Assembly: GCF_025716945.1 (NCBI RefSeq) | Contig: NZ_JAOVZT010000016.1 | Span: 31,725-88,792, forward strand | Direction: 5' to 3' | DNA length: 57,068 nt | DNA from: Geodermatophilus sp. YIM 151500 | GTDB lineage: Bacteria > Actinomycetota > Actinomycetes > Mycobacteriales > Geodermatophilaceae | Part shown: piece by piece, positions 20,236-38,711 of the stretch | Layout: the number at the start of each line of letters is the position of its first letter | How positions within the stretch are numbered: position 1 is the first letter of the stretch | Made by a program: the position numbers and the translations under genes | Notes under the pieces: generated by a model | The model's input: only the letters and a program-made list of their open reading frames with translations | Told to the model about the DNA's origin: nothing | The model's database searches: none

Positions 20236-21168
20236 CTAGCGAGGGATGAACTTCGACGCCACAAGACGCACGTCACGCAAGGGATCATGCTCCCGACAGA
20301 CCACGATCAAGTTGGCCGGGTTCGGAGCGCCGTGGATGTTTCGTGGCGCAACGGTAAGCTCATCAGAGGAGGTTCGGGCGGCGCAGCCGCTCGGGTCTTC
20401 GCACCGCCCCCGCATCGCTAGAAACCGCACCACCCAAAACGGCTGGGGCACGCTGACCGGTCCGAGCGTCGGGTGTTTACGTACACGAGGGGCTCCCTCA
20501 GCGTCATATATGAGAGCACGGTTCGACTTCACGCGATTACACCATCCGCAGGCCAGCCGCAGATTATGTAAGAGGCTGGATCCGCCGGAGGAGTGTGCAA
20601 CCACATGCTCCACTTCGATCCGAAGGTCGAGCAGCTTGACGCCGCGAGACGTGTAGAAGTCGACAAACGGCGGAGTCCGCGGCTCCGCATCGCTCTCCTC
20701 ACCCAGAAACGCCGCGCGAGCCCAGTCACTGAACTCGGCGCCACACACCCAGCACCGCGGGTAGAGCTCCCAGAGGAAGAGGCGAGTCTCCCGATCGGCG
20801 ACGACGCGTCGCCCCACCTCGAGTCGACCGATCTTTCGCCAGAGCAGCTTCGTCAACCGACTTGCGAGTTGTGTTCGCTCGTCGGCGGGCAACAGACCTG
20901 CATCGGACGCCAGAGCGTCACTAACGCGCTTGTAGAGGTGCGCATACTGCTGCGTACCCTCCAGGTAGGGCAAGGGATCAGCGAGCCCTTCGAGGAACCA
21001 ACGGGCCCAGAGGTGATTTATGTCACCGCGCAGCAGCCAATTGGTCAGCCCACCCAAGCTTGCTGGTGCAACTTTCGCAGCAATATCTCGGACACCATCC
21101 TCGTCCCATACCGCTGCGTCGACCTCGAACGCCTGTTGAATGAAGTCGCCGAGCGCGCGGTCCACGGG
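20236..21168 (-). CDS. HNH endonuclease-family protein
   Basis: A 310-aa protein. The central zinc/HNH motif starts with CWVCG (about residue 140), continues with IEVEHVVAHSSGGSSLLHNLRLAC (EH...H...N) and ends with CGWCNRVKSN, giving two CxxC pairs and the beta-beta-alpha metal site. A second Cys/His group lies near the C-terminus (CEDPSGC; CREHDP). The N-terminal 130 residues are helical and unassigned. The GTG at 21168 was chosen because it lies 4 bases after the TAA of the DGQHR gene with AAGGA overlapping that stop. G+C is clearly lower than in the core region. It is probably the nuclease of a two-gene defence unit. Confidence 0.75.
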   Translation of the reverse strand, partial: PVDRALGDFIQQAFEVDAAVWDEDGVRDIAAKVAPASLGGLTNWLLRGDINHLWARWFLEGLADPLPYLEGTQQYAHLYKRVSDALASDAGLLPADERTQLASRLTKLLWRKIGRLEVGRRVVADRETRLFLWELYPRCWVCGAEFSDWARAAFLGEESDAEPRTPPFVDFYTSRGVKLLDLRIEVEHVVAHSSGGSSLLHNLRLACGWCNRVKSNRALIYDAEGAPRVRKHPTLGPVSVPQPFWVVRFLAMRGRCEDPSGCAARTSSDELTVAPRNIHGAPNPANLIVVCREHDPLRDVRLVASKFIPR

Positions 21169-21172
21169 GTCC

Positions 21173-23686: not shown

Positions 23687-25897
23687 GTGACTGGGGACAC
23701 TGCCTTCGGCGACGTGCGACCGCACACCTGGCTCGACGCCTTTCCCTGGGTCAAGGGGGCTGCCGACGGGGCGGAGTGCCCGTGGTGGGACGAACCCATC
23801 GACGCCCCCGGTGTCGCTGTCCGGCAACAGCGCGTCGCGCAGATCGCTGAGTTGGCGATGGCACGGCTCAGCCAGTGGACGATCGGTCAGATCTTCCCCG
23901 GGTTGTCGCCAGAGACCGAATTGCTGCAGCTTCGGCTGCCGGTGCGCGCCCGCAATGCGCTGGGCCGGTACGGCTGCCTGAGCGGGGCCGACCTCATGGG
24001 CGTCACCCTGCGCGCGGTGATGGAGTGGCAACAGGTCGGCGTCGGGACCGTTGATGCGATTCTCCAGGCTCTCGCGGATGTCTCGACGTCGCTGCCCACG
24101 CCCCGGGTCAGCGCCCTCTGGTATGCCGGGGACGCGCTGACGGCGCCGGAGGAGCGCGCGGCGCATCAGCCGGACTGGCTGGCGGCTTTCGTCGAGGACC
24201 TCGATCGCCTCGCCACCTGGTACGCCACGATCGGGCAGCCTCAGCGACCGCTGCTGGAGGCAACCCTCGCCCCTGGGACGCCGGACGAGGTCGTCAAAGC
24301 CCGGCAGCGCCTTGATTCCCTGTGCGCGAGCGACGTCCTCGCCGAGGATGCCGCAGAGGCGGATGTCGCTGCTCGCTTCGATGAGGCGCTGGCGACCCTC
24401 GATCCGCGAGCGGTCCAAGTCTTGGCCAATCGCCTGTTCGCCGATGACGCTCGCACGCTGGACGAAATCGGGCGCGACCACGGTGTAACCCGCGAACGCA
24501 TTCGACAGATCGAGGGCAAGGCGCGCGGCGCGCTGCTCGGTTTGGTCGGTGACGGCGGACAGCTCGCCATGGTCGCCGAAGCCGCCCGGACCCTGATTGG
24601 CACCATCCGACCGCTGGACGATCTGCTGGCTCTCATGCCCGCCCTCGGGAAGACGGTTGCGTCGGTTGGCCAGCCGGCGTGGCGGGTCCTCGATCGCCTC
24701 GAGGACGCCTACGAGATCGAGGATGGCTGGTGTGTCGTGCCGACCGTCACCGCGGCGCGGACCATCACGCAAACCCAACTCCAGGAACGGGTTGACCGCT
24801 ACGGCGTCGCCCGGATCGACAACCTCAGTCTCGTCGAAAGCAGCCAACCCGAGCGTCTGACCGGACTGACGGCGGCCTGGCTGACGCACTGTGGCTACGT
24901 CGTCGACGGCGACTTTGTCCTCACCCGGACGCAATCGGTGCAGGACTACGGCGCGGCGGTGCTGTCGATCGTGGGCTCGCCGCTCGGCGCCCAGGAGATC
25001 GTCGACCGCTTCGTGATCGAGCGCAGCGCCGCCTCACTGCGCAACGCCATTAGCGGCGATGACCGCTTCGAGCGCGTCGATCGGGACCGCTGGGCGCTCC
25101 GGGAATGGGGCATGGATGCCTACGCCGGTGTCCGATCCCTAATCCGGGAGCAGGTGGCGCGCAGCGGCGGACGCGTGCAGCTCGAAGACCTAATCGAGCA
25201 CATCACTGCCCGTTATACCGTCACCGCCAGCAGCGTCGTGGCGTACGCCAGCTCGCCGCCGTTCCAGTGCAAGGGGGGCGTGGTCACTCTCGCGAGCGAC
25301 GACCGAGAGGTGCGAAAGACGCCCGAGCAGACCCGCCGCCTCTTTCGGCATCCGGACGCCTGGGCTTACCGGGTGCGCATTACCGCCGACCACCTGAGAG
25401 GCAGCGGCTCAGCAGCACCGGTGGCCATCGCGAGCCTCCTCGACCTGCAGTTTGGACAGACGCGCCAGCTCTCCTCGCCACTGGGTCCGCAGGCGGTCGC
25501 GTGGACCGCCATCCAGCCGTCGTTCGGCACCATCCGCCGCTTCCTGTTGGCCGGCGACATCGCCGTCGATACCGAGGCGTTCCTGGTGATCCATGACGAC
25601 GGCACGTTCTCCTTCGAGCCGGCCCGTGACATGACCGGCAACCCGCTCCTCGATGCACTGAGCTTGATCGGCGCGCCGGTGACCGCCGACCGCAACGAAG
25701 CCCGCAGCTTGCTCGCTGCAGCCGTCGGGCTCTCAGCAGCCACGCCCGTTACGAGCATGATCGGCAGCTACCGCGAACGCGGCGACAGCGACGTCGCGGA
25801 TCTCCTGACGAGCGTCCGCGAATCCCTGGAGACGGGCCACACTCCGCCGTCTCCCACACACCGAGCCGCCGTCGACGACATTCTGGACCTGCTGTGA
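23687..25897 (+). CDS. DNA-binding protein with alphaCTD-like, sigma-70 region 4-like and winged-helix domains
   Basis: A 736-aa protein starting at GTG 23687. Residues about 80-122 (LRLPVRARNALGRYGCLSGAD ... VGVGTVDAILQAL) resemble the RNA polymerase alpha C-terminal domain. Residues about 228-270 (LDPRAVQVLANRL ... TLDEIGRDHGVTRERIRQIE) are a clear sigma-70 region 4 helix-turn-helix. Residues about 410-465 (GSPLGAQEIVDRF ... LRNAISGDDRFERVDRD) look like a HARE-HTH-type winged helix, with another likely one at 470-530. No sigma region 2 is present, so it is not a normal sigma factor. Its stop overlaps the helicase start (GTGA), placing it in the same operon; it probably recruits the module to DNA or regulates it. 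Protein-level role is inferred. Confidence 0.7.
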   Translation: MTGDTAFGDVRPHTWLDAFPWVKGAADGAECPWWDEPIDAPGVAVRQQRVAQIAELAMARLSQWTIGQIFPGLSPETELLQLRLPVRARNALGRYGCLSGADLMGVTLRAVMEWQQVGVGTVDAILQALADVSTSLPTPRVSALWYAGDALTAPEERAAHQPDWLAAFVEDLDRLATWYATIGQPQRPLLEATLAPGTPDEVVKARQRLDSLCASDVLAEDAAEADVAARFDEALATLDPRAVQVLANRLFADDARTLDEIGRDHGVTRERIRQIEGKARGALLGLVGDGGQLAMVAEAARTLIGTIRPLDDLLALMPALGKTVASVGQPAWRVLDRLEDAYEIEDGWCVVPTVTAARTITQTQLQERVDRYGVARIDNLSLVESSQPERLTGLTAAWLTHCGYVVDGDFVLTRTQSVQDYGAAVLSIVGSPLGAQEIVDRFVIERSAASLRNAISGDDRFERVDRDRWALREWGMDAYAGVRSLIREQVARSGGRVQLEDLIEHITARYTVTASSVVAYASSPPFQCKGGVVTLASDDREVRKTPEQTRRLFRHPDAWAYRVRITADHLRGSGSAAPVAIASLLDLQFGQTRQLSSPLGPQAVAWTAIQPSFGTIRRFLLAGDIAVDTEAFLVIHDDGTFSFEPARDMTGNPLLDALSLIGAPVTADRNEARSLLAAAVGLSAATPVTSMIGSYRERGDSDVADLLTSVRESLETGHTPPSPTHRAAVDDILDLL

Positions 25898-28029
25898 GCA
25901 CGTCTCCCCGCGGCCTGCGGTCCCTTTCCCTACATGACCGCTATCGCAGCGATCAGGAAGACGTCGTCGCCACCTTCTACGTGCCGGCCTTCACCGTCGC
26001 GTCCAGCTACAGCCGCGCGGTGGGCTACTTCACCTCCAGCAGTCTCGCCCTCTATGCCCGCGGCATCGAGACGTTCGCTGCGCGGGGCGGCACGATGCGG
26101 GTGGTCGCCTCTCCGCATCTCAGCGAAGACGACATCGTGGACATCGAACGGGGCTACGACGTCCGCGCGGTCATCGAACGGGCGACCATGCGCGAGCTGG
26201 ATTTCGAGGAGCAGGAACCGGTCCTCGATGGACTCGGCATGCTGGGCCGCCTGATCGCCGAGGGCCAACTCGACATCAAGCTGGCATTCGTCGAGCAAGC
26301 TGGGCGCGTTGGCATCTACCACGAGAAGATCGGCGTCTTTCGCGACGACTTCGGCGACCTCGTGGGCTTCACGGGCAGCAGTAACGAGACCTACGGCGGT
26401 CTCATGGCCAACTTCGAATCTGTCGAGGTCTACCGCGGCTGGGTGGCAGGGGACGGCGCGCGGGCGCTCCGGCTCGAGCGTGACTTCCAGGCGCTCTGGG
26501 CCAACCAGACGCCGAACCTCGCGGTTGAGCGCTTTCCGGATATTGCCCGCGAGCGGCTCATCAAGCTCGGCAGCGAGCGACCGAATCGCCCGGTGCCAGG
26601 CCGCGATGACGCGCTGACGCCTGCCCCGCCCACCGTTTCCGAGCCGATGCGGCTGCGCATCCCCAGCTGGCTGGACGTCCGCGGCTACCAGCGGCAGGCG
26701 GTCGAGTCGTGGCTTCGTCAACAAGGCCGCGGCATCCTCAAGATGGCCACCGGCACCGGGAAAACGAAGACGGCCATGATCGCCGCCACCCAGCTCGGCA
26801 ACGTCCTGGGGCAGCGCGAGCAACCCCTTGTCGTGCTCATCCTGGCCCCGCTGCAGCACCTGGTCGACCAGTGGATCACCGAGGTAGGCGACTTCGGCGT
26901 GCGCCCGATCGCCATCTACGAGGCGAGCCAGAAGTGGATGCGCGCCGTCGAAGACCAACTGGCCGAAGCCCGTCTCGGCCAGCGCCCGGTGGTGGTCATG
27001 GTCGCCACCAACAAGTCGTTCGCCGGTGACAGGTTTCAGGCGGTGCTGTCCCGCATCACGCAGCCGCTGCTGGTCATAGCCGACGAGGCGCACAACCTCG
27101 GCTCGTCGACCTATCGCACGGCACTTCCCCCGGGCGCCACCTACCGCCTGGCCCTCTCGGCGACACCGGAGCGTTGGTTCGACGATGCGGGCACCGACGC
27201 GCTCATCGACTACTTCGGTCCGATCGTCTTCGAGCTCGGTCTCGCCAAGGCGATCGAGATGGGGGCGCTGTGCCGCTACACCTACCTCCCGCGGCTCGTG
27301 GAATTGAACGACCAAGAGACCAATCTGTACGTCGAGCTGACGACGCAAATCGCCAAGCGCATCGCTGCGGGCGACAGCGTGCAGGACGCCGACCCTGACT
27401 CCCCCATCGGCTTCCTGCTGCGGCAGCGCGCCGGCGTCATGGGACATGCCGAGGGCAAGGTGGCGGCGCTCCAAGCGGACCTGAGCGCACGCCGAGACTC
27501 CTGGTTCCAGCTCGTCTATTGCGCCGAGGGCCGGCGACCGACGGAGCCGGGTGACCCGCCGGGGCCTAACCAGCTCAACGACGTCATGCAGCTGGTGGGC
27601 CACCGGCTGCAGCTACCGGCCCACTCCTACGTCGACGGCGTCTCGCGGCCACAGCGCAGGGTAGTGCTGCGCCGTTTCAGCAGGGGCGACGATCTACGGG
27701 TACTGGTCGCCATGCGCTGTCTCGATGAGGGCGTCGACATCCCCGATGCCCGCATCGGTTACCTGCTAGCCAGCAGCAGCAATCCTCGCCAGTTCATCCA
27801 GCGGCGCGGACGCCTGCTGCGTCGTGCCCCCGGCAAGGAGCAGGCCGAGATCCTGGATTACCTCGCGGTGCCGCCGGCTGGGGCACCAGTCAACTTCGAT
27901 GTCGAGCGAGCCCTATTGGCGCGTGAGCTGCAGCGGGCCCACGAGTTCGGCACGTTGTCGGAGAACTATGCGAGCACGCTCCAGGTGCTCCGGCCGCTGA
28001 AGGAGCGGTACCAGCTCCTGGACATGTAG
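25894..28029 (+). CDS. PLD-nuclease/SF2 helicase fusion, restriction-enzyme-like
   Basis: A 711-aa protein. Residues about 20-190 form a phospholipase D-like nuclease domain, with the HxK motif in IYHEKIGVFRD and the downstream GFTGSSNET. A superfamily 2 helicase follows: Walker A ATGTGKTKTA (about residue 287), DEAH box ADEAHNLGSSTY (about 396), motif III LSATPERW, and motif VI QFIQRRGRLLRRA (about 635). This architecture matches helicase-nuclease restriction subunits, including the family annotated as the DNA phosphorothioation system restriction enzyme. GTG start overlapping the previous TGA. In this operon it is the best candidate for the DNA-cutting or translocating subunit. Confidence 0.82.
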   Translation: MSTSPRGLRSLSLHDRYRSDQEDVVATFYVPAFTVASSYSRAVGYFTSSSLALYARGIETFAARGGTMRVVASPHLSEDDIVDIERGYDVRAVIERATMRELDFEEQEPVLDGLGMLGRLIAEGQLDIKLAFVEQAGRVGIYHEKIGVFRDDFGDLVGFTGSSNETYGGLMANFESVEVYRGWVAGDGARALRLERDFQALWANQTPNLAVERFPDIARERLIKLGSERPNRPVPGRDDALTPAPPTVSEPMRLRIPSWLDVRGYQRQAVESWLRQQGRGILKMATGTGKTKTAMIAATQLGNVLGQREQPLVVLILAPLQHLVDQWITEVGDFGVRPIAIYEASQKWMRAVEDQLAEARLGQRPVVVMVATNKSFAGDRFQAVLSRITQPLLVIADEAHNLGSSTYRTALPPGATYRLALSATPERWFDDAGTDALIDYFGPIVFELGLAKAIEMGALCRYTYLPRLVELNDQETNLYVELTTQIAKRIAAGDSVQDADPDSPIGFLLRQRAGVMGHAEGKVAALQADLSARRDSWFQLVYCAEGRRPTEPGDPPGPNQLNDVMQLVGHRLQLPAHSYVDGVSRPQRRVVLRRFSRGDDLRVLVAMRCLDEGVDIPDARIGYLLASSSNPRQFIQRRGRLLRRAPGKEQAEILDYLAVPPAGAPVNFDVERALLARELQRAHEFGTLSENYASTLQVLRPLKERYQLLDM

Positions 28030-28071: not shown

Positions 28072-28236
28072 GTGACCGATGACGGTCGCACGGAGAAGCA
28101 GGTGCTTGAGGAGCTTGGCGACGAGGAGCGCGCCCTGCTCAAGCGCGTCCTGGAGATCGAGCGAGCCAAGCTCCACTTGAGCGCCTACGACGCCACGGAC
28201 GACTTGCTCGCCGCGGTCAAGGAGATTATTCCGTGA
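28072..28236 (+). CDS. 54-aa acidic helical protein of the defence operon
   Basis: A short gene starting at GTG 28072 with GGGAGA upstream, ending at TGA 28234-28236, which overlaps the GTG of the following ATPase gene. The translation (TDDGRTEKQVLEELGDEE ... LLKRVLEIERAKLHL ... DDLLAAVKEIIP) is charged, helix-forming and coding in composition. Its position between the helicase and the ATPase, with coupled translation, suggests a small complex subunit, comparable in size to other Dnd accessory proteins. I do not recognise a family. Confidence 0.7.
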   Translation: MTDDGRTEKQVLEELGDEERALLKRVLEIERAKLHLSAYDATDDLLAAVKEIIP

Positions 28237-30290
28237 GGCTGCAGTCCATCACGCTGACGAACTTCCGCCAGTTCGAGGGCGTACAGACGTTCGACTTGAC
28301 CTCCGACGCCATCCGCCCCGTGTCGTTGCTCTTCGGCGCGAACGGAGCCGGCAAGACCACCTTCCTGAATGCCTTCACGTGGGCGCTCCACGGTGCGATG
28401 TCAGAGGATGTGGAACAGCAGGAGCGCATGGTGAGCGACAGCGTGTGGCGCGCGCTGCCGATCGGCCAGTCCGTCGAGGTCGCTGTCGAACTCCGGTTCG
28501 ACCACGAGGGCCGCGACTACCGACTGCTGCGCCAGGCCAGCGTGCACAAGCAGTCCGACCACCAGACGCGCCCGTCACCCGAACTGCAGCTGTGGATGAC
28601 CGCTGCCGATGGTTCGTCGGAGGTCGTGCGCGCGCCGCAAGAGACCGTCTACAGCATCTTGCCCCGTGGAGTGAGCCGCTTCTTCTTCTTCAACGGCGAG
28701 CGGATCGAGAACCTGGTCAAGAGAGGCGCCTACGCCGAGGTCCAACAGGACATCAAGGTGCTGCTGGACCTCGAGCAGGTCGAGCGCGCGCTCGCGCACC
28801 TGCCGAAGGTGGATCGCAAGCTCACCGCGGAGCTCAAGAAGCACGGCGGAGACAAAGCCACTGAGATCCAGGAGGCCATCGACGCCCTACGCGAGCGGGA
28901 AACCACCGATCGCGACCAGCTGAAACTGCTGGAAGGCGACCTGGCGGCGCTCACCGAGGAACGTGACGCGGTGCTCGACGTGCTGCGGCAGCACAACGAG
29001 ACGCGGCCCATCCAGGAGCGTCGCGACGCGGTCGCCCGCGACCTGGAAGACGCCAAGGCGGCCCTTGCAACCGCCCAAGCCGAGCGGCAGCACCTCATCG
29101 CCACGCGCGGATTCCTGGCCTTCACCGAGTCACTCGGCGACACGACCCAGGCGATGGCCGAGAGCTTGTACGAGAAGGGGAAATTGCCGTCCCCACTGAA
29201 GCGGGAGTTCGTCGACAAGCTGCTGAAGAACGGAGCCTGCATCTGCGGCACGCCGCTGACCGAGCACTCCGAGCCGTGGCTGCACGTGAAGGACTGGCGC
29301 CAGAAGGCCGGCCTGCAAGCGGTCGAGACGGCGTGGCAGCAGCTGAGCGGCCAGATCGGCCCGCTGGCAACAGCCCGCGTCGACCTGCGGGAGAGTCTGT
29401 CGTCGCTCATGACGCGCATCAACGCGCAGCGCGACCGGGTCGACCGGCTCATCGAGGAGCAGTCGGAGCTCGACGGCAAACTGCGCGACAGCCGGCGGGA
29501 GGACGTGCAGGCGCTTGAGAGCAAGCGGATCGACCTGGACACGCAGCTCGGCATCAAGCAGCAGCGCATCGGCTCGGTGCGGTCTGAGCTGGATCGCCTG
29601 GGGAGAGACATCGAGCAGAAGACCAAAGAGCGCCGCACCGCGGAGGTGACGGACGAGCTGGCCGCCAAGGCCCGAGCCCGCTCGGACCTGGTGCAGTCGG
29701 TGAAGAAGGCCCTAGAGGAGATCCTCGCCATCCGCGAGGAGGACATGCGTCGTCGGCTCGACGCCGAGCTCAAGACCGTGTTTCGGAGCATCACCCACCA
29801 GAACCACGTCCCGTCGCTCAATCGGGGCTTCGAGCTGACGCTCCACAAGGACGTCGACGGCGTGCAGCTCCAGGTGCCGAAGTCAACCGGTGAGAACCAG
29901 ATCTTGAGCCTGAGCTTCGTGGCCGCGGTGTCCAAGTTGGCGCGCGAGATCCGCAAGGAGCGCCGGGCCGAAGGAGAGGCGCCGCCCGACGCGGGCATCT
30001 ATCCGATCGTCATGGACGCCGCGTTCGGCTCGCTCGACCAGGACTACCAGCAGGCCGTCTCGCGCGCCCTGGCGCAGATGGCACCGCAGTTGGTCGTCCT
30101 GGTCAGCAAGAGCCAGGGACTCGGCAGGGTCGTCACCGAGCTGATGCCCTACGTCAGCCACCTGGGGGTCATCGAGACCCACACCACGGCCGCCGGCGAT
30201 GTCGCGGACGACATCGAGATCGAGGGCGTCGCCCACCCCTACATCAGGCCAGCGAGCACCGACCATTCCGAGCTGAAGGTGATCAAGTGA
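28233..30290 (+). CDS. SMC/Rad50-type ATPase, DndD-like paralogue
   Basis: A 685-aa protein. N-terminal ATP-binding lobe: RLQSITLTNFRQFEG and Walker A FGANGAGKTTF (residues 35-43), then FFFNGERIENL, the same block as FFFDGEQIEAL in the true DndD of this island. A long coiled coil is interrupted by a Cys motif GACICGTPL (about residue 335), a hook-like CxC. The C-terminal lobe has the signature-like NQILSLSFVAAVS and Walker B IVMDAAFGSLD, with Ala where SMC proteins have the catalytic Glu (DndD has Thr). It differs from DndD at 32603-34576 in having the hook and in operon context, so it is a second, divergent ATPase probably powering the effector. Confidence 0.8.
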   Translation: MRLQSITLTNFRQFEGVQTFDLTSDAIRPVSLLFGANGAGKTTFLNAFTWALHGAMSEDVEQQERMVSDSVWRALPIGQSVEVAVELRFDHEGRDYRLLRQASVHKQSDHQTRPSPELQLWMTAADGSSEVVRAPQETVYSILPRGVSRFFFFNGERIENLVKRGAYAEVQQDIKVLLDLEQVERALAHLPKVDRKLTAELKKHGGDKATEIQEAIDALRERETTDRDQLKLLEGDLAALTEERDAVLDVLRQHNETRPIQERRDAVARDLEDAKAALATAQAERQHLIATRGFLAFTESLGDTTQAMAESLYEKGKLPSPLKREFVDKLLKNGACICGTPLTEHSEPWLHVKDWRQKAGLQAVETAWQQLSGQIGPLATARVDLRESLSSLMTRINAQRDRVDRLIEEQSELDGKLRDSRREDVQALESKRIDLDTQLGIKQQRIGSVRSELDRLGRDIEQKTKERRTAEVTDELAAKARARSDLVQSVKKALEEILAIREEDMRRRLDAELKTVFRSITHQNHVPSLNRGFELTLHKDVDGVQLQVPKSTGENQILSLSFVAAVSKLAREIRKERRAEGEAPPDAGIYPIVMDAAFGSLDQDYQQAVSRALAQMAPQLVVLVSKSQGLGRVVTELMPYVSHLGVIETHTTAAGDVADDIEIEGVAHPYIRPASTDHSELKVIK

Positions 30291-30760
30291 CGACAGCCGC
30301 CGTCGACGTTCGGATCCGCCGTCCACAGCAGCACGAAGCCCTGTTACTTGAGCTGCAGACCGAGTCCCGGTTTCCGTACTTCCGCGACGTACTGCTGTTC
30401 GCGGCGGCACTCGGCTTCCGAAACGAACGCCGTGTGCCGTTCACGGCCGCGTCGGGTGACCCCATTCGTTACGACACCCTGACGGCGCCGATGTTCAGCG
30501 AGGCGCTCGTCAACATGATCGCGGCCAACGTGGTGACTGACGATCCCGAGGTCATGGACGCCAGCCGCATCGAGGAGCGGGTCAAGATCTTCGAGGAGTA
30601 CGCCAACGGCGGGCTGGAGTACCTCCAGGAGCAGGTCAACTTCCGGCACCAGCCGGCAGCCCTCGTCGTCGACGCCCTCGTAACGGAGGCCCTGTCCGAG
30701 AGCGGAGCCGCCAAGCCGGTCTCGGTGGAGGAGCTGCTCAGTGGGGCGAGCTGGGGGTAG
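30287..30760 (+). CDS. Dnd system-associated small protein (TIGR04062-like)
   Basis: A 157-aa protein whose GTG overlaps the ATPase stop. The block SRFPYFRDVLLFAAALGFRN resembles the small proteins annotated as dnd system-associated protein 4; the rest is helical and acidic (IEERVKIFEEYANGGLEYLQEQ). Its 3' end overlaps the convergent methyltransferase gene by 23 bp. It is probably a structural or specificity subunit of the plus-strand module. The family assignment is from memory of the motif and moderately sure. Confidence 0.6.
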   Translation: MTTAAVDVRIRRPQQHEALLLELQTESRFPYFRDVLLFAAALGFRNERRVPFTAASGDPIRYDTLTAPMFSEALVNMIAANVVTDDPEVMDASRIEERVKIFEEYANGGLEYLQEQVNFRHQPAALVVDALVTEALSESGAAKPVSVEELLSGASWG

Positions 30761-32207
30761 CGGGCCGGCGCACCAGCCGGTGGCCCTGCACGGTAACCCC
30801 GGCCTGCGCCAGCACCGCCTCCCAGCCGGCCCGTGTGCCGATGCGGCTGGGATCTGCGTAGAGACCCTTCCGGTGCTCCGCCTTGGTCAAGCGGGCGTAC
30901 ATCTCCCGCCGCGGATCATCCGGTCCGACGAACTCCTCCTTGCGATGCAGCAGCGGCGGGTTGTCGACCTGGCGGTAGTCGCGCCAGTCGACTGTTAGCT
31001 TTCGGAGATTGACCGTGACCGCGCTGGCCAGGGTCGGGTGTGCCTGGCGCTCGAACGTCGGATACGAGAGGTAGGACACCTGAGGCTGGGTGACTGAGAG
31101 CTTCACCAGATTGGCGTTCTCGACGGTCCCCGCCAACACGCGTGCACACCCTTCGTAGACCTGCAGCACCGGGGGCAGGTGGCCTATCGCGCTGCGGTGA
31201 ACGTAGACCGCGCTTGGCGTCTGCTTACCCACCGAGGCGCTGCGCGCCGACACGAGCACGATGGCCGGGTCACCACAGGACAGCAGCAGCCGGTCCGCCT
31301 GCACGCAGGCCGCCTGGTAAGTCCCGAAGAGGCTCCGGATGTCCGTGGCCAGGCTGGCCGGCAGCTGGCTGTAACTGGGCCGTCGGCCGAAGCGCGACAG
31401 GGCGATGTAGATCAACAGCTCCGAGCGGCGCTGGATGGTGATCTGCTGCCAGAGGTCGGTATCGGTTACCTGCTGCAGCAGCCGGACCGCCCGGCCGATG
31501 CTGCCGAAGACCGTCGTGAGATCCCCTTCAGCCGCCTGGCTTAGCTCGCCCGGACGCGGCGGCCGAGCGTGCGCGGTCATGAAATCCAGCAGCGGCTCCA
31601 GCCGCTCGCGGTTGGATTCGTAGATGGCCTGCGGCTCGATGCGGACGCGCGGTCGGTAGGTGTGCACCCGGCGGGCCAGGAAGTCTTGGGCGGTGGATGG
31701 CTCCCGGAACAGATAGAGGATGCCGGGCGCCGCGGCAACCGGTGGAACGCCGAGGGTCTGTTCGATCCAGGTGGCCAGCTCTGCCTGTTCGTAGAACTTC
31801 TGGAAGGTGCCGGTCCGGGTGAGCAGACCATCGCCGAAGGGCCGGCCGACGAGGTCGCGGGCGTCCCACACGAGGCGCGCGCTGACAACGAGCAGCCGGT
31901 TGGCCAACCCCCAGGCTTGGCGAAGGCAGGCGGCGCGTTCGGATTGGTCCTCGATGACGTTGACGACGTAGCCGAGATTGACGACGTCGGCGGCGGCCCG
32001 GGGCCCATCGGGCTGGTGAACCGGATCCCAACCCGCAGCCGGAATGCCGAGTGCTTTGGCATGGCGCACGTCGTCGCCGCGGCCGCTGCCGTAGTCCAGC
32101 AGCGTCTGGGATGGGTTGAGCAAGTTGTCGGCCAGGGCGGTCGCGAGCGGCCGGGACAGGTGGGTGCGGACCAGCGCTGTCCGGTGGCGCGCGACCGCCG
32201 AGATCAT
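30738..32207 (-). CDS. DNA phosphorothioation-associated putative methyltransferase (TIGR04096-like)
   Basis: A 489-aa protein. The SAM-binding motif I is LLDYGSGRGDDVRHAKALG (about residue 38), followed by AAGWDP at the end of strand 2 and a motif VVNLGYVVNVIED. C-terminal two thirds are specific to the family that accompanies dnd loci. It overlaps dndE (ATGA), so it is the last gene of the dndBCDE operon. The target (DNA or protein) is unproven; in phosphorothioating archaea and bacteria it has been proposed to act alongside sulfur modification. Confidence 0.8.
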   Translation of the reverse strand: MISAVARHRTALVRTHLSRPLATALADNLLNPSQTLLDYGSGRGDDVRHAKALGIPAAGWDPVHQPDGPRAAADVVNLGYVVNVIEDQSERAACLRQAWGLANRLLVVSARLVWDARDLVGRPFGDGLLTRTGTFQKFYEQAELATWIEQTLGVPPVAAAPGILYLFREPSTAQDFLARRVHTYRPRVRIEPQAIYESNRERLEPLLDFMTAHARPPRPGELSQAAEGDLTTVFGSIGRAVRLLQQVTDTDLWQQITIQRRSELLIYIALSRFGRRPSYSQLPASLATDIRSLFGTYQAACVQADRLLLSCGDPAIVLVSARSASVGKQTPSAVYVHRSAIGHLPPVLQVYEGCARVLAGTVENANLVKLSVTQPQVSYLSYPTFERQAHPTLASAVTVNLRKLTVDWRDYRQVDNPPLLHRKEEFVGPDDPRREMYARLTKAEHRKGLYADPSRIGTRAGWEAVLAQAGVTVQGHRLVRRPATPSSPH

Positions 32208-32596
32208 GCGGCGGCCACCCCCTCCAGTGCCAAGCTGGCCAGGCCTGCCACATCCGTTACCCGAGGATCGCCGAAGAGGTAGCCGATGCCGCGGTGCAGG
32301 TGGAGCCGGAACTGCTGCGCCAGCGTCTCCTCGTCCAGTGCCAGGCCATCCTGGTGGCAGCGGGAGCGCAGCAAGGCCCAGAGCGCGTCGCCGTAGTCGC
32401 CGGCGAAGACGCGCCAGGTCATCTCGACGTTGCTGTCGAGGCTGAGTTTGACGGCGGGAGGCGGCGCTGGCTCGGCCAGCGAGCGGCAGAACGCCCAGCG
32501 ACAGAGGACGTTCCAGTGCATGATGCCCGTCCGGCGCTTGAGCGTGATGAGCTGGTCGCGCGCCGCCTGGGACAGCCGGATGTGTTCAAGGGGCAT
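32204..32596 (-). CDS. dndE: DNA sulfur modification protein DndE
   Basis: A 130-aa protein, the usual size for DndE. The N-terminal helix RLSQAARDQLITLKRRTGIMHWNVLCRWAFC and the C-terminal HLHRGIGYLFGD are family hallmarks. DndE binds nicked DNA and is needed for sulfur insertion together with DndC and DndD. ATG 32596 lies 6 bases after the dndD stop; its own stop overlaps the methyltransferase start. Confidence 0.9.
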   Translation of the reverse strand: MPLEHIRLSQAARDQLITLKRRTGIMHWNVLCRWAFCRSLAEPAPPPAVKLSLDSNVEMTWRVFAGDYGDALWALLRSRCHQDGLALDEETLAQQFRLHLHRGIGYLFGDPRVTDVAGLASLALEGVAAA

Positions 32597-32602
32597 GCGG
32601 AC

Positions 32603-34576
32603 TCACTCCCAGAAGTAGCCGGGCACGACGGCGGTGGCGTTGGCCTTCGGATCGAAGGCCAGTTGGTAGCTGCGGCCGACGTGCTGAGCCAGCCGGCGGT
32701 GGGCAGCATCGACGATCTCTGTGTCGGTCGACAGAAGAATCACCTGGTGGCTGGCGTGCGGAAAGTAGCGCTCAAGCAAGTGCGCTCGGTGTTCCCCGTC
32801 CAGCCGACCGAGCGGCGTGTCGATGACCACCGGCAGTGGCTGGCCGGCAGCACGGGCGAGTCCCCAGAGCAGAGCGACGGCCAGCAGCTGGCGCTCCCCG
32901 GCCGACAGAGCGCCAGCCGGCAAGGCCTGCGCGTCCGGTCCGGTCAGTTGCACCGCGTAGGTCTGTGGATCGATGGACACATCGGTGATGAGGTTCGATT
33001 TGCGGAGCAGCCGGTTCAGGGCCTCGAGAACCAGAGTGGCGATGCCGTCAAGATGGCGGCGAACGGCGGCTTCGCGCAACTGCTCGAGGGTGGCCTGGAC
33101 GCGGTCGACGTGGTCGAGGAGTCGGCGACCGTCGTCGGCCACCAGACCAGCTTCAGTCCATTTGGTCCAGGCCGTTTCATACGCGGCATTAGCCCGGGCC
33201 CGATTCTGGCGCAGAGCCGTCAACTGCTCTTCCAGTTGCGTGAGCTTGGCGTCGAGCCGCAGTGCCTCGGTCGCGGCGGCATCGCGCTCGGCGAGCAGCG
33301 GCGCCAGTGAGGCAGCGTCCGGGATGGCGACGACGACGCGCTCAGCCTGGTCGAGGTCGGCTCGCACCTCCGCCCGGCGGTGGACGAGCTGGGCGAGCCG
33401 CCGCTGCGCCGCTGGCAGGGTCGTGCCGGCCAGCTGCTCGATGACGACTGCATTACTCAGGCCCGTGATGATCGGCACGTCAGTGGCGCGGGCCCGCGCC
33501 TCACGATCGGCGGCCAGCCGCTGCTCCACCGTCCGGAGCGCCTTGGCCGTCAGCTTGTCCGCAGTTAGCTGCGCCAGGAGCGCCGAGTCACGCTCGTCCA
33601 GGGCCGCCGCGACGATCCGCTGGCGGGCAGCTGACGCCTCTGCCCCGGCCTGCCGGGCGACCCGCCCCAGCAGGGCGGTGACCTGCAGCAAGGGCGCGGC
33701 CTCGGCCAGTTCTTGGCGCAGTTCCTCCTCGTAGGCGGCCAGCTGGCCTTTCAGCAAGCTTGCCCGAGCCTCCGCGACCTCCCGCTGGTCGAGCAGCTCA
33801 CCGCCCGACGCCCGGTAGCGCTCGGTCAGCTCGAACTCCTGCTTGTCGGCCCATTCCTTCTCCACCCGGGCCGCAGCCACGGCGGCAGACGCAGCCTCCT
33901 CGGCTTGCCGGGCAGCCGTCACGCCCAGCCGATGCTCATCGACCGCTTGACGGAGCTCGACGGGAACTTGTTGAGCGCGGTGGCGGCGCTTCAGCACGGC
34001 GAGGTCGGTGTTCAGCCGGTCCACCAGATCGAGCCCGAGCAGCGCGGCCAGGGCCGAGGCCAGCACCTGGCGCGACCGCTCCAAGTCGGCCAGTGCCTCG
34101 ATCTGCTCGCCGTCAAAGAAGAACAACCCGGCGATGCCCCGCGGCAGAAACGTCTCGACGTAGTCGCTCCAGGTCGCCGTCAGGGCACTGTCGTGACGGC
34201 CGTCGACCGACACCAGCAGGATCTCGCGGAGCGACTTGCCGGTGCTCTTCCAGCTGCGACGGATGCGGTAGTGGCGTTCCCGGCCCTGCTGGTAGGCGTG
34301 GAAGGCCAGTTCGATGGCGGCGCCTTCGCTTTCGGGTACGCCGCGGTGAATCAGGCCGCGCAGGTAGTTCTCGTAGCTGCCCGAGTGCCGTCCAGAGACC
34401 GGCGCCAATGGCCCGTACAGGGCGACGTGGATGGCTTCCAAGATGGTCGTCTTGCCGGCCCCATTCAGGCCGCCGATCAGCACGATCGGCTTGCGCGGCG
34501 ACGGGGGTGTCAGCTCAATGGCGTGACGGCCGGCGAAGGTGCCGACGTTGTGCAGGACAAGTTCGTCGAGGATCAC
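32603..34576 (-). CDS. dndD: DNA sulfur modification protein DndD
   Basis: A 657-aa SMC-like ATPase of the phosphorothioation complex. Walker A is GGLNGAGKTTILEA (about residue 35); GIAGLFFFDGEQIEALADLE follows at about 150. The coiled-coil arms are Ala/Arg/Glu-rich with no Cys hook. The ABC signature is ALSAGERQLLAVALLWGLA and Walker B VVIDTPLGRLD (about residue 585). GTG 34576 overlaps the dndC stop (GTGA). Confidence 0.93.
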   Translation of the reverse strand: MILDELVLHNVGTFAGRHAIELTPPSPRKPIVLIGGLNGAGKTTILEAIHVALYGPLAPVSGRHSGSYENYLRGLIHRGVPESEGAAIELAFHAYQQGRERHYRIRRSWKSTGKSLREILLVSVDGRHDSALTATWSDYVETFLPRGIAGLFFFDGEQIEALADLERSRQVLASALAALLGLDLVDRLNTDLAVLKRRHRAQQVPVELRQAVDEHRLGVTAARQAEEAASAAVAAARVEKEWADKQEFELTERYRASGGELLDQREVAEARASLLKGQLAAYEEELRQELAEAAPLLQVTALLGRVARQAGAEASAARQRIVAAALDERDSALLAQLTADKLTAKALRTVEQRLAADREARARATDVPIITGLSNAVVIEQLAGTTLPAAQRRLAQLVHRRAEVRADLDQAERVVVAIPDAASLAPLLAERDAAATEALRLDAKLTQLEEQLTALRQNRARANAAYETAWTKWTEAGLVADDGRRLLDHVDRVQATLEQLREAAVRRHLDGIATLVLEALNRLLRKSNLITDVSIDPQTYAVQLTGPDAQALPAGALSAGERQLLAVALLWGLARAAGQPLPVVIDTPLGRLDGEHRAHLLERYFPHASHQVILLSTDTEIVDAAHRRLAQHVGRSYQLAFDPKANATAVVPGYFWE

Positions 34577-36117
34577 GGCGCAACCCGCTGTCCGACCTCA
34601 CGCACGAGGCCGTCGGCCAGGTCCAGCGGATCCGGCTCGGCGGCATCCGCCTCGTCCACCGGACGGGCAGCCACCTCTTGCCGCTGCAGCGCCCGGAGGA
34701 CGGCATCAGCTTCGTCGTCGTAGAAGCCGCGGCGCAGCGCCTTCTCGATGGCATCGAAGAGGCCGGAGCGACGTGCCTGTGCCCGGTGGCGCTGCTCGAT
34801 ATCGAGCAGCTCGCGCACCAGCTCAAAGTGCAGGCGGTCCTCCCCCACTACGTCACCGAGCAGCTCGACCATGGCGGGGCCCAGCGGAAGGTGCTCATCA
34901 AGCGGGCGGCCGGGGTAGGGCGTGCTGGTGGCCTGCTGGTAGATGCCGGGCAGGTGGTCCTCGAACTCGTGCTTCTCGACAACCCAGAGACGACGGATCT
35001 CCTCCAGTTCGGCGAGGGTGATGAGCTCCAGCTGCCGGACGTAGTCGGGGCCGTTGGCCCGGATCCAGGTCTGGGCCTCGAGCAGCCGCCGCAGCCAGCG
35101 CTCACGCGACGCCTGGGTGTAGGGCCCGGGGATCAGCCGGTTGTCTTTGCCGAAGACCTGCACCGAACCGTTCATCCGCCGAAAGTCACGCAGGTGGCGG
35201 TCGTCGGCGACATCAAGCTCGTTGCGCAGCTCCAGGAGTGGCAGCATCCACTCCTTTTCTTCGTCGTTCTGAATCATGGCGGCCATCGACTTGTCCTGGT
35301 CGACCAGCGTGCACGTCCAGCAACCGAAGCGGCTGTCGCCGCAGCTCGGCGTGCTGGCGTCGACCACCAGCGGGCACTCACCATCAGCCGAGGCGCCCTG
35401 ATACATGGTCAGCAACTCCTTGTTGGAGTAGCCCCAGGGGTTCTTGACCTGCATCAGGAAGGTCCAGACGTCGTCGTTCGACCAGTCCTCGACGGGCGAG
35501 TAGACGAGGCAGTTCGGCAGCGAGTCATTCGGGCTCAGCAGGTCACGCACCCGGCGCTCCTCGAGGGCCGTCATACGGTGCGACCGGCCGGCCGACTCGG
35601 CCTTGCGGGTGCCAAGCACCAGGATGGCCTCACCGTGAGCCTGAACCATCTCGCGGATGAAGGTGTTCGACGGCTTGATCTTCAGCCGCTCGGTGCACCA
35701 GCGGAACTTCGGCCGCGGCGCCGGATAGCCCCGGCCGATCAGGTTGACCCAGAAGGTATCGGCCACCGCCGGCGTCAGGCGGTGCGGCGTCAGCGGCAGA
35801 CTGGCGCTCCGGGCGGCTTCAGCCATGACGTCGAGCGAGTGCGTCACCCAGGCGGCCACCACCGGGTTCTCGACCAACGTGTCGGTTGAGATGACGTGAA
35901 CCGGCTTGTGGCGCTGCTCGGCCGGCAGCCGTTCCAGCGCCAGCCAGACCAGCTGCAGCACCGCCGTCGAGTCCTTACCGCCGGAGTACCCGACCACCCA
36001 CGGAACGCTGTCGGCGAGGTAGAGCTGCTGCGTCTGCCCCACCAGGGCGTCCACGGTGGCGGCGAAGCCGGACCCGTCAAAGGCGGAGCGGGGCCGGATG
36101 GGCAGGCTGCGCGTCAT
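34573..36117 (-). CDS. dndC: DNA phosphorothioation system sulfurtransferase DndC
   Basis: A 514-aa PAPS-reductase-like enzyme that activates the DNA backbone and inserts sulfur. The PP-loop is VVGYSGGKDSTAVLQLVW (about residue 45). Cysteines for the 4Fe-4S cluster are in CTERLKIKP (about 140) and the CGDSRFGCWTC block (about 260). The ATG overlaps the dndB stop (ATGA). All motifs expected of an active DndC are present. Confidence 0.95.
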   Translation of the reverse strand: MTRSLPIRPRSAFDGSGFAATVDALVGQTQQLYLADSVPWVVGYSGGKDSTAVLQLVWLALERLPAEQRHKPVHVISTDTLVENPVVAAWVTHSLDVMAEAARSASLPLTPHRLTPAVADTFWVNLIGRGYPAPRPKFRWCTERLKIKPSNTFIREMVQAHGEAILVLGTRKAESAGRSHRMTALEERRVRDLLSPNDSLPNCLVYSPVEDWSNDDVWTFLMQVKNPWGYSNKELLTMYQGASADGECPLVVDASTPSCGDSRFGCWTCTLVDQDKSMAAMIQNDEEKEWMLPLLELRNELDVADDRHLRDFRRMNGSVQVFGKDNRLIPGPYTQASRERWLRRLLEAQTWIRANGPDYVRQLELITLAELEEIRRLWVVEKHEFEDHLPGIYQQATSTPYPGRPLDEHLPLGPAMVELLGDVVGEDRLHFELVRELLDIEQRHRAQARRSGLFDAIEKALRRGFYDDEADAVLRALQRQEVAARPVDEADAAEPDPLDLADGLVREVGQRVAP

Positions 36118-37253
36118 GCGTCTCCTCGTCGAAAGGTGTCGTCGATCTGCTGCTCATCGGGCGGCAGCGGAAGACCAAGGGCGTTGCGGATGGCCGCCGT
36201 CGTCAGGAGCACGTTGGCGCGGCTCTTCGAGACCTTGCCGCCGAGGACGGCGCGCCCCTCCCAGGCGGCACTCCCCCGGTGCCAGTCAAGCTGCCGCAGG
36301 CCCTTCAGGGTCTTCTGCCAGCTGGCCCGATTCGTACTCGCCCGCAGCAGACTGTTGCCGATGATGCCGAGAGCGTGCAGAACGATGCCGTGGCTGTGGA
36401 TGAAGTCGCGCCGGATCTCACCGGCGCTCAGCTCGCGCCGCCGGACCATCGCCCATTCCGGGAACTGCTCGGCGACCACCTCCCAGTAGGTCGTCGCGAG
36501 GTCGACCCGCCGCTCAAGCGAATCGGGCTCGATGTCCTCAAGCAGCGCGCGGTTGGCGTTGTAGAAAGCCGACAGAGTGAACAGCTTGCGCGATCGAGTC
36601 GACAGGTTGCTGGTCTCCGTCTCGGTCAGGTCGTTGTACAAGTCCGATCGGAATACGACCAGCCGTGAGATGGCCGACATCTCGTCCCGCTGGTCGTAGA
36701 GCACACCGATCGACTTGGCTGGACGGATGGCATAGCGGTTGAGGTCAGCGAACATCTGCTGGGAGCGTTCCAGCCCAATGTCCAGAAACATGACGATGGC
36801 GATGCTCTCGTCCCCCAGCTCCGGATTCTCGGCCAGCGCCTGCTGAATGCCAGCGCGGCGGTGCTGCCCGTCGTTGATGACGAACTTGGCTTCCATCGGG
36901 ATGGTCAGGGTGCCGAGCCGCTCGCCGCCGCGGCCGTCGGCGTCGAAGGCCTCGAAGCGAACGTCCGCATTGACCGACGCGGTGAGGGCTGAGAACACGT
37001 AGCTGGTCGGGTTGTCCAGGATGTAGCGGGCGATCTCCGGGACGCGCGCCTTGTTGAGGGTGCGCTGCGCGCGCAGCTCCGGCGTCAGCTCCTCCTCGTC
37101 GAAGACGAACAGCCTGGGAATGAGGCGCAACGGGCACATCGTGACGTAGTACTCGCGGCCGGCCTGGATGCCCCGGATCGCCGGGAAGACGTACTCGAAG
37201 GCGGACGCCCGCGACCTGGCGGGGGCCGCGGAACTCACACGTGGTGCGGCCAT
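36114..37253 (-). CDS. dndB: DNA sulfur modification regulator DndB
   Basis: A 379-aa DGQHR-family protein with FVINDGQHRRAGIQQAL (about residue 123) and the following FADLNRYAIRPAKSIGVLYD block. DndB is dispensable for sulfur insertion but controls dnd expression and modification level. ATG 37253 was preferred over the in-frame codon at 37292 because a -10 TAGACA ends seven bases before it, with TTGCGC 17 bases further up, implying a leaderless transcript; the longer start would lie inside the operator. First gene of dndBCDE-methyltransferase. Confidence 0.92.
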   Translation of the reverse strand: MAAPRVSSAAPARSRASAFEYVFPAIRGIQAGREYYVTMCPLRLIPRLFVFDEEELTPELRAQRTLNKARVPEIARYILDNPTSYVFSALTASVNADVRFEAFDADGRGGERLGTLTIPMEAKFVINDGQHRRAGIQQALAENPELGDESIAIVMFLDIGLERSQQMFADLNRYAIRPAKSIGVLYDQRDEMSAISRLVVFRSDLYNDLTETETSNLSTRSRKLFTLSAFYNANRALLEDIEPDSLERRVDLATTYWEVVAEQFPEWAMVRRRELSAGEIRRDFIHSHGIVLHALGIIGNSLLRASTNRASWQKTLKGLRQLDWHRGSAAWEGRAVLGGKVSKSRANVLLTTAAIRNALGLPLPPDEQQIDDTFRRGDA

Positions 37254-37260
37254 GCCCGTC

Positions 37261-37299
37261 TGTCTACCCTTCAGATGTACGGAGCGCAACATCCGTACA
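37261..37299 (-). promoter_or_regulatory. dndB promoter and palindromic operator in the dndA-dndB gap
   Basis: Minus-strand promoter: -35 TTGCGC (37289-37284), 17-nt spacer, -10 TAGACA (37266-37261). A palindrome TGTACGGA (37276-37283), 8-nt spacer, TCCGTACA (37292-37299) is centred on the -35, so a bound protein would block RNA polymerase. It holds the core TACG...CGTA, similar to a dyad I recall being reported for the DndB/DptB regulator of Salmonella (exact spacing not certain). Autoregulation by DndB is the likely meaning. Confidence 0.7.
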
Positions 37300-38549: not shown

Positions 38550-38711
38550 TTCGAGCTGAGTCTGGGAGGATAAGGATGGCCTCGGCAATGAGAGCCTCCA
38601 TCAGGTTCACCACGGACACTGGGCTTGCCGGTTGTCATCTGGCTGAGCTCGGTGACTGCTCAGCCAGTCGCTGACTCTCACTCGGTTCGCAGAGGAGACG
38701 AGGGCCAATTC

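What the first reader, a model, noticed from the sequence alone, without database searches (positions are those of the whole stretch)
23687..25897. One protein combining RNA polymerase alphaCTD-like and sigma region 4-like DNA-binding domains in a defence operon
Residues 80-122 look like alphaCTD and 228-270 are a clear sigma4 helix-turn-helix, followed by winged helices of HARE-HTH type; no sigma region 2 exists. Transcription-machinery domains appear to be reused as a DNA-recognition scaffold, perhaps to read modified DNA (HARE-HTH has been predicted to recognise DNA modification).
Basis: partly seen in the sequence, partly recalled or inferred. Interest (0 to 1): 0.75.

Follow-up and report, generated by a model that had tools for sequence, protein, structure and literature searches.

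The report
Promoter-reading domains in phage-defence gene
A bacterial protein assembled from pieces that resemble three parts of the gene-transcription machine is the first gene of an anti-virus operon, and its relatives sit beside or are fused to several unrelated DNA-cutting systems, so it probably guides such systems to DNA rather than switching genes on.

Summary
The domain observation holds. The 736-residue protein has an alpha-CTD-like domain (77-133), sigma region 4 (226-285), one HARE-HTH (408-478), a second winged helix (479-540) and a conserved C-terminal region (541-711) without a PDB sequence match; Pfam reports no other sigma region. It heads a complete pbeABCD operon beside dnd genes and overlaps pbeA (GTGA). 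It is not PbeB (54-aa ORF 28072-28236).

It is an optional Pbe part: 5 of 9 PbeA genomes sampled in the window's order and family have a relative before pbeA; one of the other four has an extra full sigma-70 factor there. Of 16 plasmid PbeA records opened (of 25), 7 have a sigma-4-type gene in the pbe cluster, in three phyla. Its divergence follows PbeA, not DndC. Relatives also lie in MZA operons, next to GmrSD, REase-ARP or SF1-helicase/REase genes, and are fused to an SF1-helicase/REase and to DEDDh exonucleases.

Best reading: a DNA-recognition adaptor for nuclease/helicase effectors, perhaps reading promoter-like DNA. A phosphorothioate-specific role is untested and not supported as a family trait. 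The architecture itself was, as I recall, described in 2012; I found no text linking it to Pbe in the papers searched.

The parts
23687..25897 (+). 736-aa protein: alpha-CTD-like + sigma region 4 + winged helices incl. HARE-HTH + conserved C-terminal region; first gene of the pbe operon
   Evidence: relatives
23915..24085 (+). alpha-CTD-like domain, residues 77-133; R87, N90 and G118 align with an arginine, asparagine and glycine of RNA polymerase alpha-CTD (recalled as E. coli R265, N268, G296)
   Evidence: Pfam E 0.0025; profile vs PDB E 8.3e-12; domain limits mine
24362..24541 (+). sigma region 4-like domain, residues 226-285
   Evidence: Pfam E 4e-10; fold match Z 10.3
24488..24514 (+). 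sigma-4 recognition-helix motif TRERIRQIE, residues 268-276
   Evidence: sequence; xRERxRQ present in 21 of the 27 proteins given
24542..24907 (+). conserved region 286-407, no convincing match
24908..25120 (+). HARE-HTH domain, residues 408-478
   Evidence: hhalign 97.9%, 5.4e-13; PDB delta subunit E 0.0041; AF2 pLDDT 82.8 for 408-545
25121..25306 (+). second winged helix, residues 479-540
   Evidence: AF2 model and VIA matches to forkhead and MCM winged helices, Z about 7
25307..25819 (+). conserved C-terminal region 541-711 with DHLRGSG motif
   Evidence: alignments; no PDB sequence hit at E<=10 for 545-711
25894..25897 (+). GTGA: start codon of pbeA overlapping the stop of the 736-aa gene
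25894..28029 (+). PbeA (PLD/HKD-like domain + SF2 helicase)
   Evidence: PADLOC E 8.2e-252
28072..28236 (+). PbeB-slot small ORF, 54 aa
   Evidence: conserved small ORF at the same place in L046, L050, L143, L212, L240
28233..30290 (+). PbeC (DndD-like ABC ATPase)
   Evidence: PADLOC E 4.5e-266
30287..30760 (+). PbeD (DNA phosphorothioation-associated protein 4)
   Evidence: TIGR04062 E 1.2e-22, above cut-off; no PADLOC hit
30738..32207 (-). phosphorothioation-associated putative methyltransferase
   Evidence: TIGR04096 E 2e-184
32204..37292 (-). dndE, dndD, dndC, dndB (DNA phosphorothioation)
   Evidence: for E, C, B; dndD (32603-34576) not scanned, by tblastn to the annotated dndD of L158
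37344..38549 (+). dndA-type cysteine desulfurase
   Evidence: not scanned; tblastn to the annotated cysteine desulfurase of L158 and position beside dndB

Best explanation
The protein is a DNA-recognition adaptor (a specificity subunit) of the Pbe complex. Shown: it carries alpha-CTD-like, sigma-4-like and HARE-HTH domains plus another winged helix, its gene overlaps pbeA, it diverges in step with PbeA, and its family partners with several unrelated nucleases. Inferred: alpha-CTD (minor groove) and sigma-4 (major groove, -35-like sequence) hold a promoter-like stretch of DNA, the winged helices add contacts and may sense the state of the DNA, and the complex then loads the PbeA helicase/nuclease and PbeC-PbeD on that DNA; phosphorothioate in the host genome marks self at some other step.
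For: Domains. Coupling to pbeA: GTGA in the window; overlaps of 1-4 bases between a sigma-4-type gene and pbeA also in L050, L212, Pontibrevibacter, Ruegeria and three L. plantarum plasmids. Co-divergence: over 8 Pbe loci identity to the window protein follows PbeA identity (Spearman 0.90, Pearson 0.97) but not DndC identity over 7 loci (0.21) (not corrected for relatedness); in G1039 DndA-E are 78-96% identical to the window's while PbeA (40%) and this protein (26%) are both divergent. Other nuclease partners: SF1 helicase-MTES_1575 fusion of 2160 aa (L055), DEDDh exonuclease fusions (L059, L063), MZA operons (L051 by PADLOC; L052, L054 by similarity to it, MzaE of L052 by PADLOC), GmrSD gene 95 bases downstream (L213) and a PD-(D/E)XK REase-ARP gene overlapping the start (L225). 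DNA-contact positions: R87-type arginine in 9 of 10 and G118-type glycine in 10 of 10 rows of A7, asparagine 90 in 6 of those 10 (rows printed); xRERxRQ in 21 of the 27 proteins chosen.
Against: No DNA binding, protein contact or phage phenotype was tested. Many Pbe modules lack it: 4 of 9 PbeA genomes of the window's order/family have no relative (one of them has a sigma factor instead) and 9 of 16 plasmid records opened have no sigma-4 gene found; the tested archaeal Pbe has four genes (PMC6459918, passages). The recognition helix is changed or missing in L055, L241, L049, L226, L233, L056 and L057, so promoter-like reading cannot be general. The protein is less conserved than PbeA and PbeC (0.56 against 0.77 and 0.77 over four loci), but the variable parts are the linker (0.32), N-terminus (0.43) and alpha-CTD (0.50), not the sigma-4 or HARE domains (0.65, 0.69), which is not the pattern of a rapidly retargeted reader. 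7 of 16 family members found in the order have no nuclease or defence neighbour that I recognised; for three of these (L060-L062) neighbours were only compared with my query set, not scanned.
Confidence: 0.5

Rival explanations
1. A transcription regulator of the pbe/dnd locus: it occupies its own promoter through alpha-CTD and sigma-4 and represses or licenses the operon.
For: Domains are those that read promoters and the xRERxRQ helix is intact; it is the first gene of the operon with 780 bases to the divergent gene ending at 22906.
Against: Relatives are fused to nucleases/helicases (L055, L059, L063); a sigma-4 gene is the last gene of the Pbe cluster in L160 and convergent to it in L226; 736 aa with four or more domains is large for an autoregulator (inference); overlap with pbeA suggests coupled synthesis.
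Confidence: 0.2
2. A transcription-linked sensor: through sigma-4/alpha-CTD/delta-like surfaces it docks on RNA polymerase (or on its promoters) and couples the nuclease to RNA polymerase engaged, or hijacked, on invading DNA.
For: Three domains related to RNA polymerase alpha, sigma and delta in one chain. A full sigma factor can stand in the same place: MzaA of the Thalassospira MZA operon is ankyrin plus sigma regions 1.2-4, and genome G550 has an extra sigma-70 factor with regions 1.2-4 divergent to pbeA, 46-47% identical to two other sigma-70 factors of that genome and matched at E<=1e-85 in 1 of 112 genomes of the family.
Against: Flap-contact residues of sigma-4 were not tested; the G550 case is a single locus; no RNA polymerase contact is known.
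Confidence: 0.17
3. A phosphorothioate reader: the HARE-HTH or alpha-CTD distinguishes PT from plain DNA.
For: HARE-HTH is predicted in the literature to sense modified bases (PMC10853773 section 17; PMC11037411 passages). Of 6 genomes of the window's phylum tested that have this protein or a relative with Pbe, 5 have DndC and the sixth has an SspC homologue beside it; two more, found later, also have dnd genes.
Against: 0 of 9 genomes with relatives outside Pbe have DndC (Ssp not tested there); sigma-4 genes also occur in Pbe clusters with a methyltransferase or with no modification gene in the stretch shown (L160, L155, L234); divergence does not follow DndC; the prediction for HARE concerns modified bases, not the backbone.
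Confidence: 0.1

Closest known systems
Bacterial proteins combining RNA polymerase alpha and sigma features with HARE-HTH (Aravind and Iyer 2012, Cell Cycle 11:119; abstract recalled, paper not held)
   Same: Same domain combination, as far as I recall the abstract; NCBI names such genes sigma factor-like helix-turn-helix DNA-binding protein
   Different: I could not check whether their examples include this family or any Pbe/MZA linkage; here the C-terminal region 541-711 and the operon partners are described
PbeABCD / CxC ABC ATPase-DndE system (Xiong 2019 PMC6459918, passages; Rakesh 2024 PMC10853773, outline, sections 16-17 and passages)
   Same: The downstream genes are PbeA, a PbeB-size ORF, PbeC and PbeD beside dnd genes
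   Different: The text I read lists no sigma-4 protein in Pbe; the described cassette has four genes; 'sigma' occurs once in PMC10853773, for a DndH variant
MzaA of the MZA anti-phage system (NF041931)
   Same: Sigma-4 domain; actinobacterial relatives lie in operons with MzaB, C, D (and E), with no other sigma-4 ORF found in those loci
   Different: The MzaA examined is an ankyrin protein with a full sigma factor; its match to this family is limited to sigma-4
sigma-4 + HARE-HTH proteins of 341-386 aa in Patescibacteria-type genomes (L064, L071, L080; L082 unclassified)
   Same: sigma-4, then HARE-HTH and a winged helix, homologous to parts of residues 218-513
   Different: No alpha-CTD and no C-terminal region found; context not studied

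Membership tests
sigma-70 family sigma factor | region 4 present | tested here: met
   Pfam E 4e-10; fold Z 10.3
sigma-70 family sigma factor | region 2 (-10 reading, core binding) present | tested here: not met
   Pfam reports only Sigma70_r4 and RNA_pol_A_CTD at E<=1, so it is not filed as a sigma factor
RNA polymerase alpha CTD-like domain | sequence profile and DNA-contact residues of alpha-CTD | tested here: met
   profile vs PDB E 8.3e-12, R/N/G aligned; Pfam above cut-off in L143, L160, L049, below it in the window protein and in L145, L158, L213
RNA polymerase alpha CTD-like domain | alpha-CTD fold | tested here: inconclusive
   model residues 1-228 below pLDDT 50
HARE-HTH (PF05066) | match to the HARE-HTH profile | tested here: met
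   indirect: hhalign 97.9% with four proteins above the Pfam cut-off; no direct Pfam hit in the window protein
HARE-HTH (PF05066) | HARE-type winged-helix fold | tested here: inconclusive
   winged helix modelled; matches to many winged helices incl. Zalpha (8.1) and delta (7.0-7.2) are tied
PbeABCD system | pbeA, pbeB, pbeC, pbeD in order beside dnd genes | tested here: met
PbeB | small protein between pbeA and pbeC | tested here: not met
   the 736-aa gene lies before pbeA; the PbeB slot holds the 54-aa ORF 28072-28236
MzaA | match to the MzaA model over its length | tested here: not met
   44.7 bits over sigma-4 only, curated cut-off 800;
phosphorothioate reader | binds PT DNA better than plain DNA | not testable with these tools
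   no binding data; co-occurrence evidence mixed

The most novel reading that the evidence does not exclude
Several nuclease-based defence systems (Pbe, MZA, SF1-helicase/REase and others) share one swappable surveillance part built from RNA-polymerase alpha, sigma and delta domains, sometimes replaced by a true sigma factor; it makes them recognise promoters, or RNA polymerase at promoters, on incoming DNA, so that transcription-competent foreign DNA is what is attacked.
Probability: 0.17. Interest if true: 0.87.

Novelty: new variant of a known kind. Interest (0 to 1): 0.6.

Why it matters
How Pbe chooses its DNA target is left open in the papers whose passages I read. A shared, modular DNA-recognition part with promoter-reading domains would give Pbe, MZA and related systems a testable targeting rule, and its exchange for full sigma factors would tie anti-phage defence to transcription in a way that can be checked with simple mutants.

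Tried and rejected
Considered and dropped: that the protein is PbeB (the slot holds a 54-aa ORF); that it is a sigma factor (no region 2); that it is an MzaA orthologue (only sigma-4 shared); that L165's sigma gene in G550 is a relative of this protein (it is a full sigma factor).

Led nowhere: the one genome-contig scan used the sigma-4 motif among its patterns and returned mostly ordinary sigma factors; of 80 loci kept I used L063, L064, L071, L080 and L082. Two IMG/VR scans found no relative and the phage collection gave no match for residues 300-736. The whole-protein AlphaFold model was poor (mean pLDDT 46.8, six sequences), so alpha-CTD and the C-terminal region have no structural test. 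The fold search of residues 408-545 is headed by an African swine fever virus protein of known fold (Z 8.5), a zinc sensor and Zalpha domains (8.1), with forkhead, MCM and delta winged helices near 7: tied, common winged helices, which do not single out HARE-HTH. Region 300-410 had only PDB hits of E 0.78 or more. Annotated neighbours in L146 and L147 and scanned neighbours of L047, L053, L056, L057 showed no nuclease or defence gene that I took for a partner. In the class, 49 of 394 genomes have the C-terminal region; I opened 20 regions of 19 of them. 10 of the 20 have a DndA-like cysteine desulfurase in view, and 3 of 8 proteins scanned have no sigma-4; their role is unresolved.

Weak points: the home-made sigma-4 profile contained three wrong-strand rows of 13 (L028, L029, L032). 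Sigma-4 in L240, L241 and L233 rests on it, with motif support for L240 and, altered, L241; absence of sigma-4 in the loci counted as negative rests on it too. The identity correlation uses values relative to one protein and is not phylogenetically corrected; two DndC values come, the L049 DndC covers only residues 11-221, and the PbeA value of L143 is my average of two pieces. 9 of 25 plasmid PbeA records were not opened. The 27 proteins are my choice; L048, L056, L057, L060-L062, L146, L147 and most members were left out. Cysteine desulfurase and dndD of the window were not scanned against a family library.
Full report
WHAT IS THERE. The ORF 23687-25897 + encodes 736 residues from a GTG start. 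Pfam gives Sigma70_r4 (E 4e-10, 234-282, above cut-off) and RNA_pol_A_CTD (E 0.0025, 77-130, below cut-off) and nothing else at E<=1. The alpha-CTD assignment becomes firm with relatives: the Arthrobacter plasmid protein (62% identical) passes the Pfam cut-off, and a ten-row profile of the region has RNA polymerase alpha chains as its first 33 PDB hits, best E 8.3e-12, with an arginine, asparagine and glycine aligned that I recall as E. coli R265, N268 and G296. In the ten rows the arginine is kept in 9 and the glycine in 10, the asparagine in 6. The sigma-4 domain has the recognition-helix sequence TRERIRQIE; the model matches sigma-4 structures with Z up to 10.3 although the model as a whole is poor and says nothing on alpha-CTD.

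HARE-HTH. The window protein has no direct Pfam HARE hit. Four proteins of 341-386 residues, three from Patescibacteria and one from an unclassified bacterium (L071, L080, L064, L082), have sigma-4 followed by HARE-HTH above the Pfam cut-off, and the profile of residues 408-482 of this family aligns to their HARE domain with 97.9% probability, E 5.4e-13. The best PDB sequence hit of that region is the RNA polymerase delta subunit, E 0.0041. AlphaFold gives two winged helices for 408-545 at pLDDT 82.8; structure matches are assorted winged helices (best Z 8.5; Zalpha 8.1; delta 7.0-7.2) that are tied. So one chain holds domains related to polymerase alpha, sigma and delta. Residues 541-650, with a DHLRGSG motif, are the best-conserved part among five close relatives (mean identity 0.71), and 545-711 matches no solved structure by sequence.

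THE OPERON. The stop codon overlaps the start of pbeA (GTGA). Downstream are PbeA (PADLOC E 8.2e-252), a 54-codon ORF at 28072-28236 in the PbeB slot, PbeC (E 4.5e-266) and a TIGR04062 protein (PbeD), then convergent dnd genes with a TIGR04096 methyltransferase. In the founding study of Pbe the cassette has four genes, PbeB has 66 aa and PbeD 152 aa, and deletion of pbeB or pbeD abolished protection (PMC6459918, passages). The later reinterpretation names PbeA an HKD nuclease-SF2 helicase, PbeB the small protein, PbeC a CxC ABC ATPase and PbeD a DndE relative (PMC10853773, sections 16 and 17); sigma occurs there once, for a DndH variant, and HARE-HTH for REase fusions. The present gene is therefore an additional one.

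HOW REGULAR IS THE LINK TO PBE. PbeA searches matched 7 of 298 genomes of the order and 5 of 112 of the family, 9 different genomes in all. Five have a relative of this protein directly before pbeA (G000, G392, G398, G1034, G1039). One, G550, has instead a full sigma-70 factor divergent to pbeA, 46-47% identical to two other sigma-70 factors of the same genome and without a match at E<=1e-85 in the other 111 family genomes. Three (G442, G524, G660) have neither by my profiles. Three further Pbe loci came from searches with this protein: G784 (64%), G263 (25%, with two alpha-CTDs and no sigma-4 hit) and G766 (26%, convergent to the Pbe genes, with an SspC homologue nearby). On plasmids 25 records matched PbeA. 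I opened 16. Seven have a sigma-4-type gene in the pbe cluster: directly before pbeA in Arthrobacter StoSoilB13, Pontibrevibacter, Ruegeria and three L. plantarum plasmids (PC518, BDGP2, and A8, where the gene is annotated hypothetical and only my profiles support it), and as last gene in Aurantiacibacter. Nine have none annotated or found, three of them archaeal. The link thus recurs in Actinomycetota, Pseudomonadota and Bacillota, but is optional.

IT TRAVELS WITH PBE, NOT WITH DND. Over eight Pbe loci, identity of this protein to the window protein follows PbeA identity (Spearman 0.90, Pearson 0.97), not DndC identity over seven (0.21; not corrected for relatedness). G1039 is the clearest case: DndA-E are 78-96% identical to the window's, while PbeA is 40% and this protein 26% identical. 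The protein is less conserved than its neighbours (0.56 mean identity over four loci against 0.77 for PbeA and 0.77 for PbeC), but the variable parts are the linker (0.32), the N-terminus (0.43) and the alpha-CTD (0.50), while sigma-4 (0.65) and HARE (0.69) are steadier. That is not what rapid retargeting through sigma-4 would give.

OTHER PARTNERS. In the order, 16 of 298 genomes have a family member at E<=1e-12. Besides the three with Pbe, three lie in MZA-type operons (L051: MzaB, C, D by PADLOC; L052 and L054 by similarity to it, with MzaE in L052 by PADLOC and in L054 by similarity), one is the C-terminal part of a 2160-residue SF1 helicase-MTES_1575 nuclease, and two follow a DEDDh exonuclease domain (in G626 one chain; in G598 two ORFs separated by a stop). 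Seven have no partner that I recognised. Elsewhere a relative is fused to a DEDDh exonuclease domain in Corynebacterium ulceribovis, lies between UvrD/exonuclease and DUF4011/DEAD genes on a Microbacterium plasmid, precedes a GmrSD gene (L213) and overlaps a PD-(D/E)XK REase-ARP gene (L225). DndC was not found in any of the 9 genomes tested that have a relative outside Pbe; the Ssp pathway was not tested there.

HOW IT PROBABLY WORKS. The most frequent recognised partner is a nuclease or helicase, the domain set is one that binds DNA, and the sigma-4 motif xRERxRQ is present in 21 of 27 proteins that I chose, among them the close Pbe and the MZA relatives; it is changed or missing in six of them and in L056 and L057. 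I infer a recognition adaptor that brings the effector to DNA, probably promoter-like DNA where the recognition helix is intact. No binding or phage data exist here. A regulator of the locus is the main ordinary rival; the fusions, the last-gene position in Aurantiacibacter and the overlap with pbeA speak against it. The presence of a full sigma factor in the same place in MZA (MzaA) and in G550 is what the plain adaptor model explains least well; it keeps a transcription-linked sensor open.

NOVELTY. From memory, the abstract of Aravind and Iyer 2012 already mentions bacterial proteins that combine features of polymerase alpha and sigma with HARE-HTH; the paper is not held. NCBI annotation calls several of these genes sigma factor-like helix-turn-helix proteins. 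MzaA as a sigma factor is in print (PMC9523054, one passage). My searches for text linking such proteins to Pbe or PT systems (open-access papers, listings only unless a passage is cited) showed none; a BREX paper mentions a sigma-like HTH domain in BrxL (PMC12839542, passages). I file it as a new variant of a known kind.

Noticed in passing
L165:4971-6488 (-), genome G550: A full sigma-70 factor (regions 1.2 to 4), 46-47% identical to two other sigma factors of the genome and with no match at E<=1e-85 in 111 other genomes of the family, lies divergent to pbeA.
   Followed up: partly
window 21173-22906 (-) and 20236-21279 (-): Overlapping pair: a 577-aa protein with weak DGQHR/DpdB/DndB similarity and a 347-aa HNH protein, just outside the pbe operon; possibly part of the same island.
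   Followed up: no
L155, L233, L234 (L. plantarum plasmids): PbeA here is helicase only (455-459 aa, no PLD-like N-terminal part) and is preceded by a 1080-1141-aa sigma-4-type protein; a PbeA N-terminal profile did not find the missing part in that protein.
   Followed up: partly
window 25894-28029: The PLD-like domain of PbeA has H-x-K (HEKIGVFRD) but the simple HxKxxxxD/E pattern is absent.
   Followed up: no
L214 (G691), with similar pairs listed for other genomes of family f103: Two members of this family about 4 kb apart; in L214 a UvrD-like helicase lies between them. Function unknown.
   Followed up: partly
L220, L222: Proteins of 800 and 716 aa that match only the C-terminal region of the window protein, have no Pfam hit at E<=0.1 and lie within view of a cysteine desulfurase.
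   Followed up: partly
window 38625-40145 (+): 506-aa PIN_8-domain protein after dndA (Pfam E 9.6e-57), possibly an accessory RNase.
   Followed up: no
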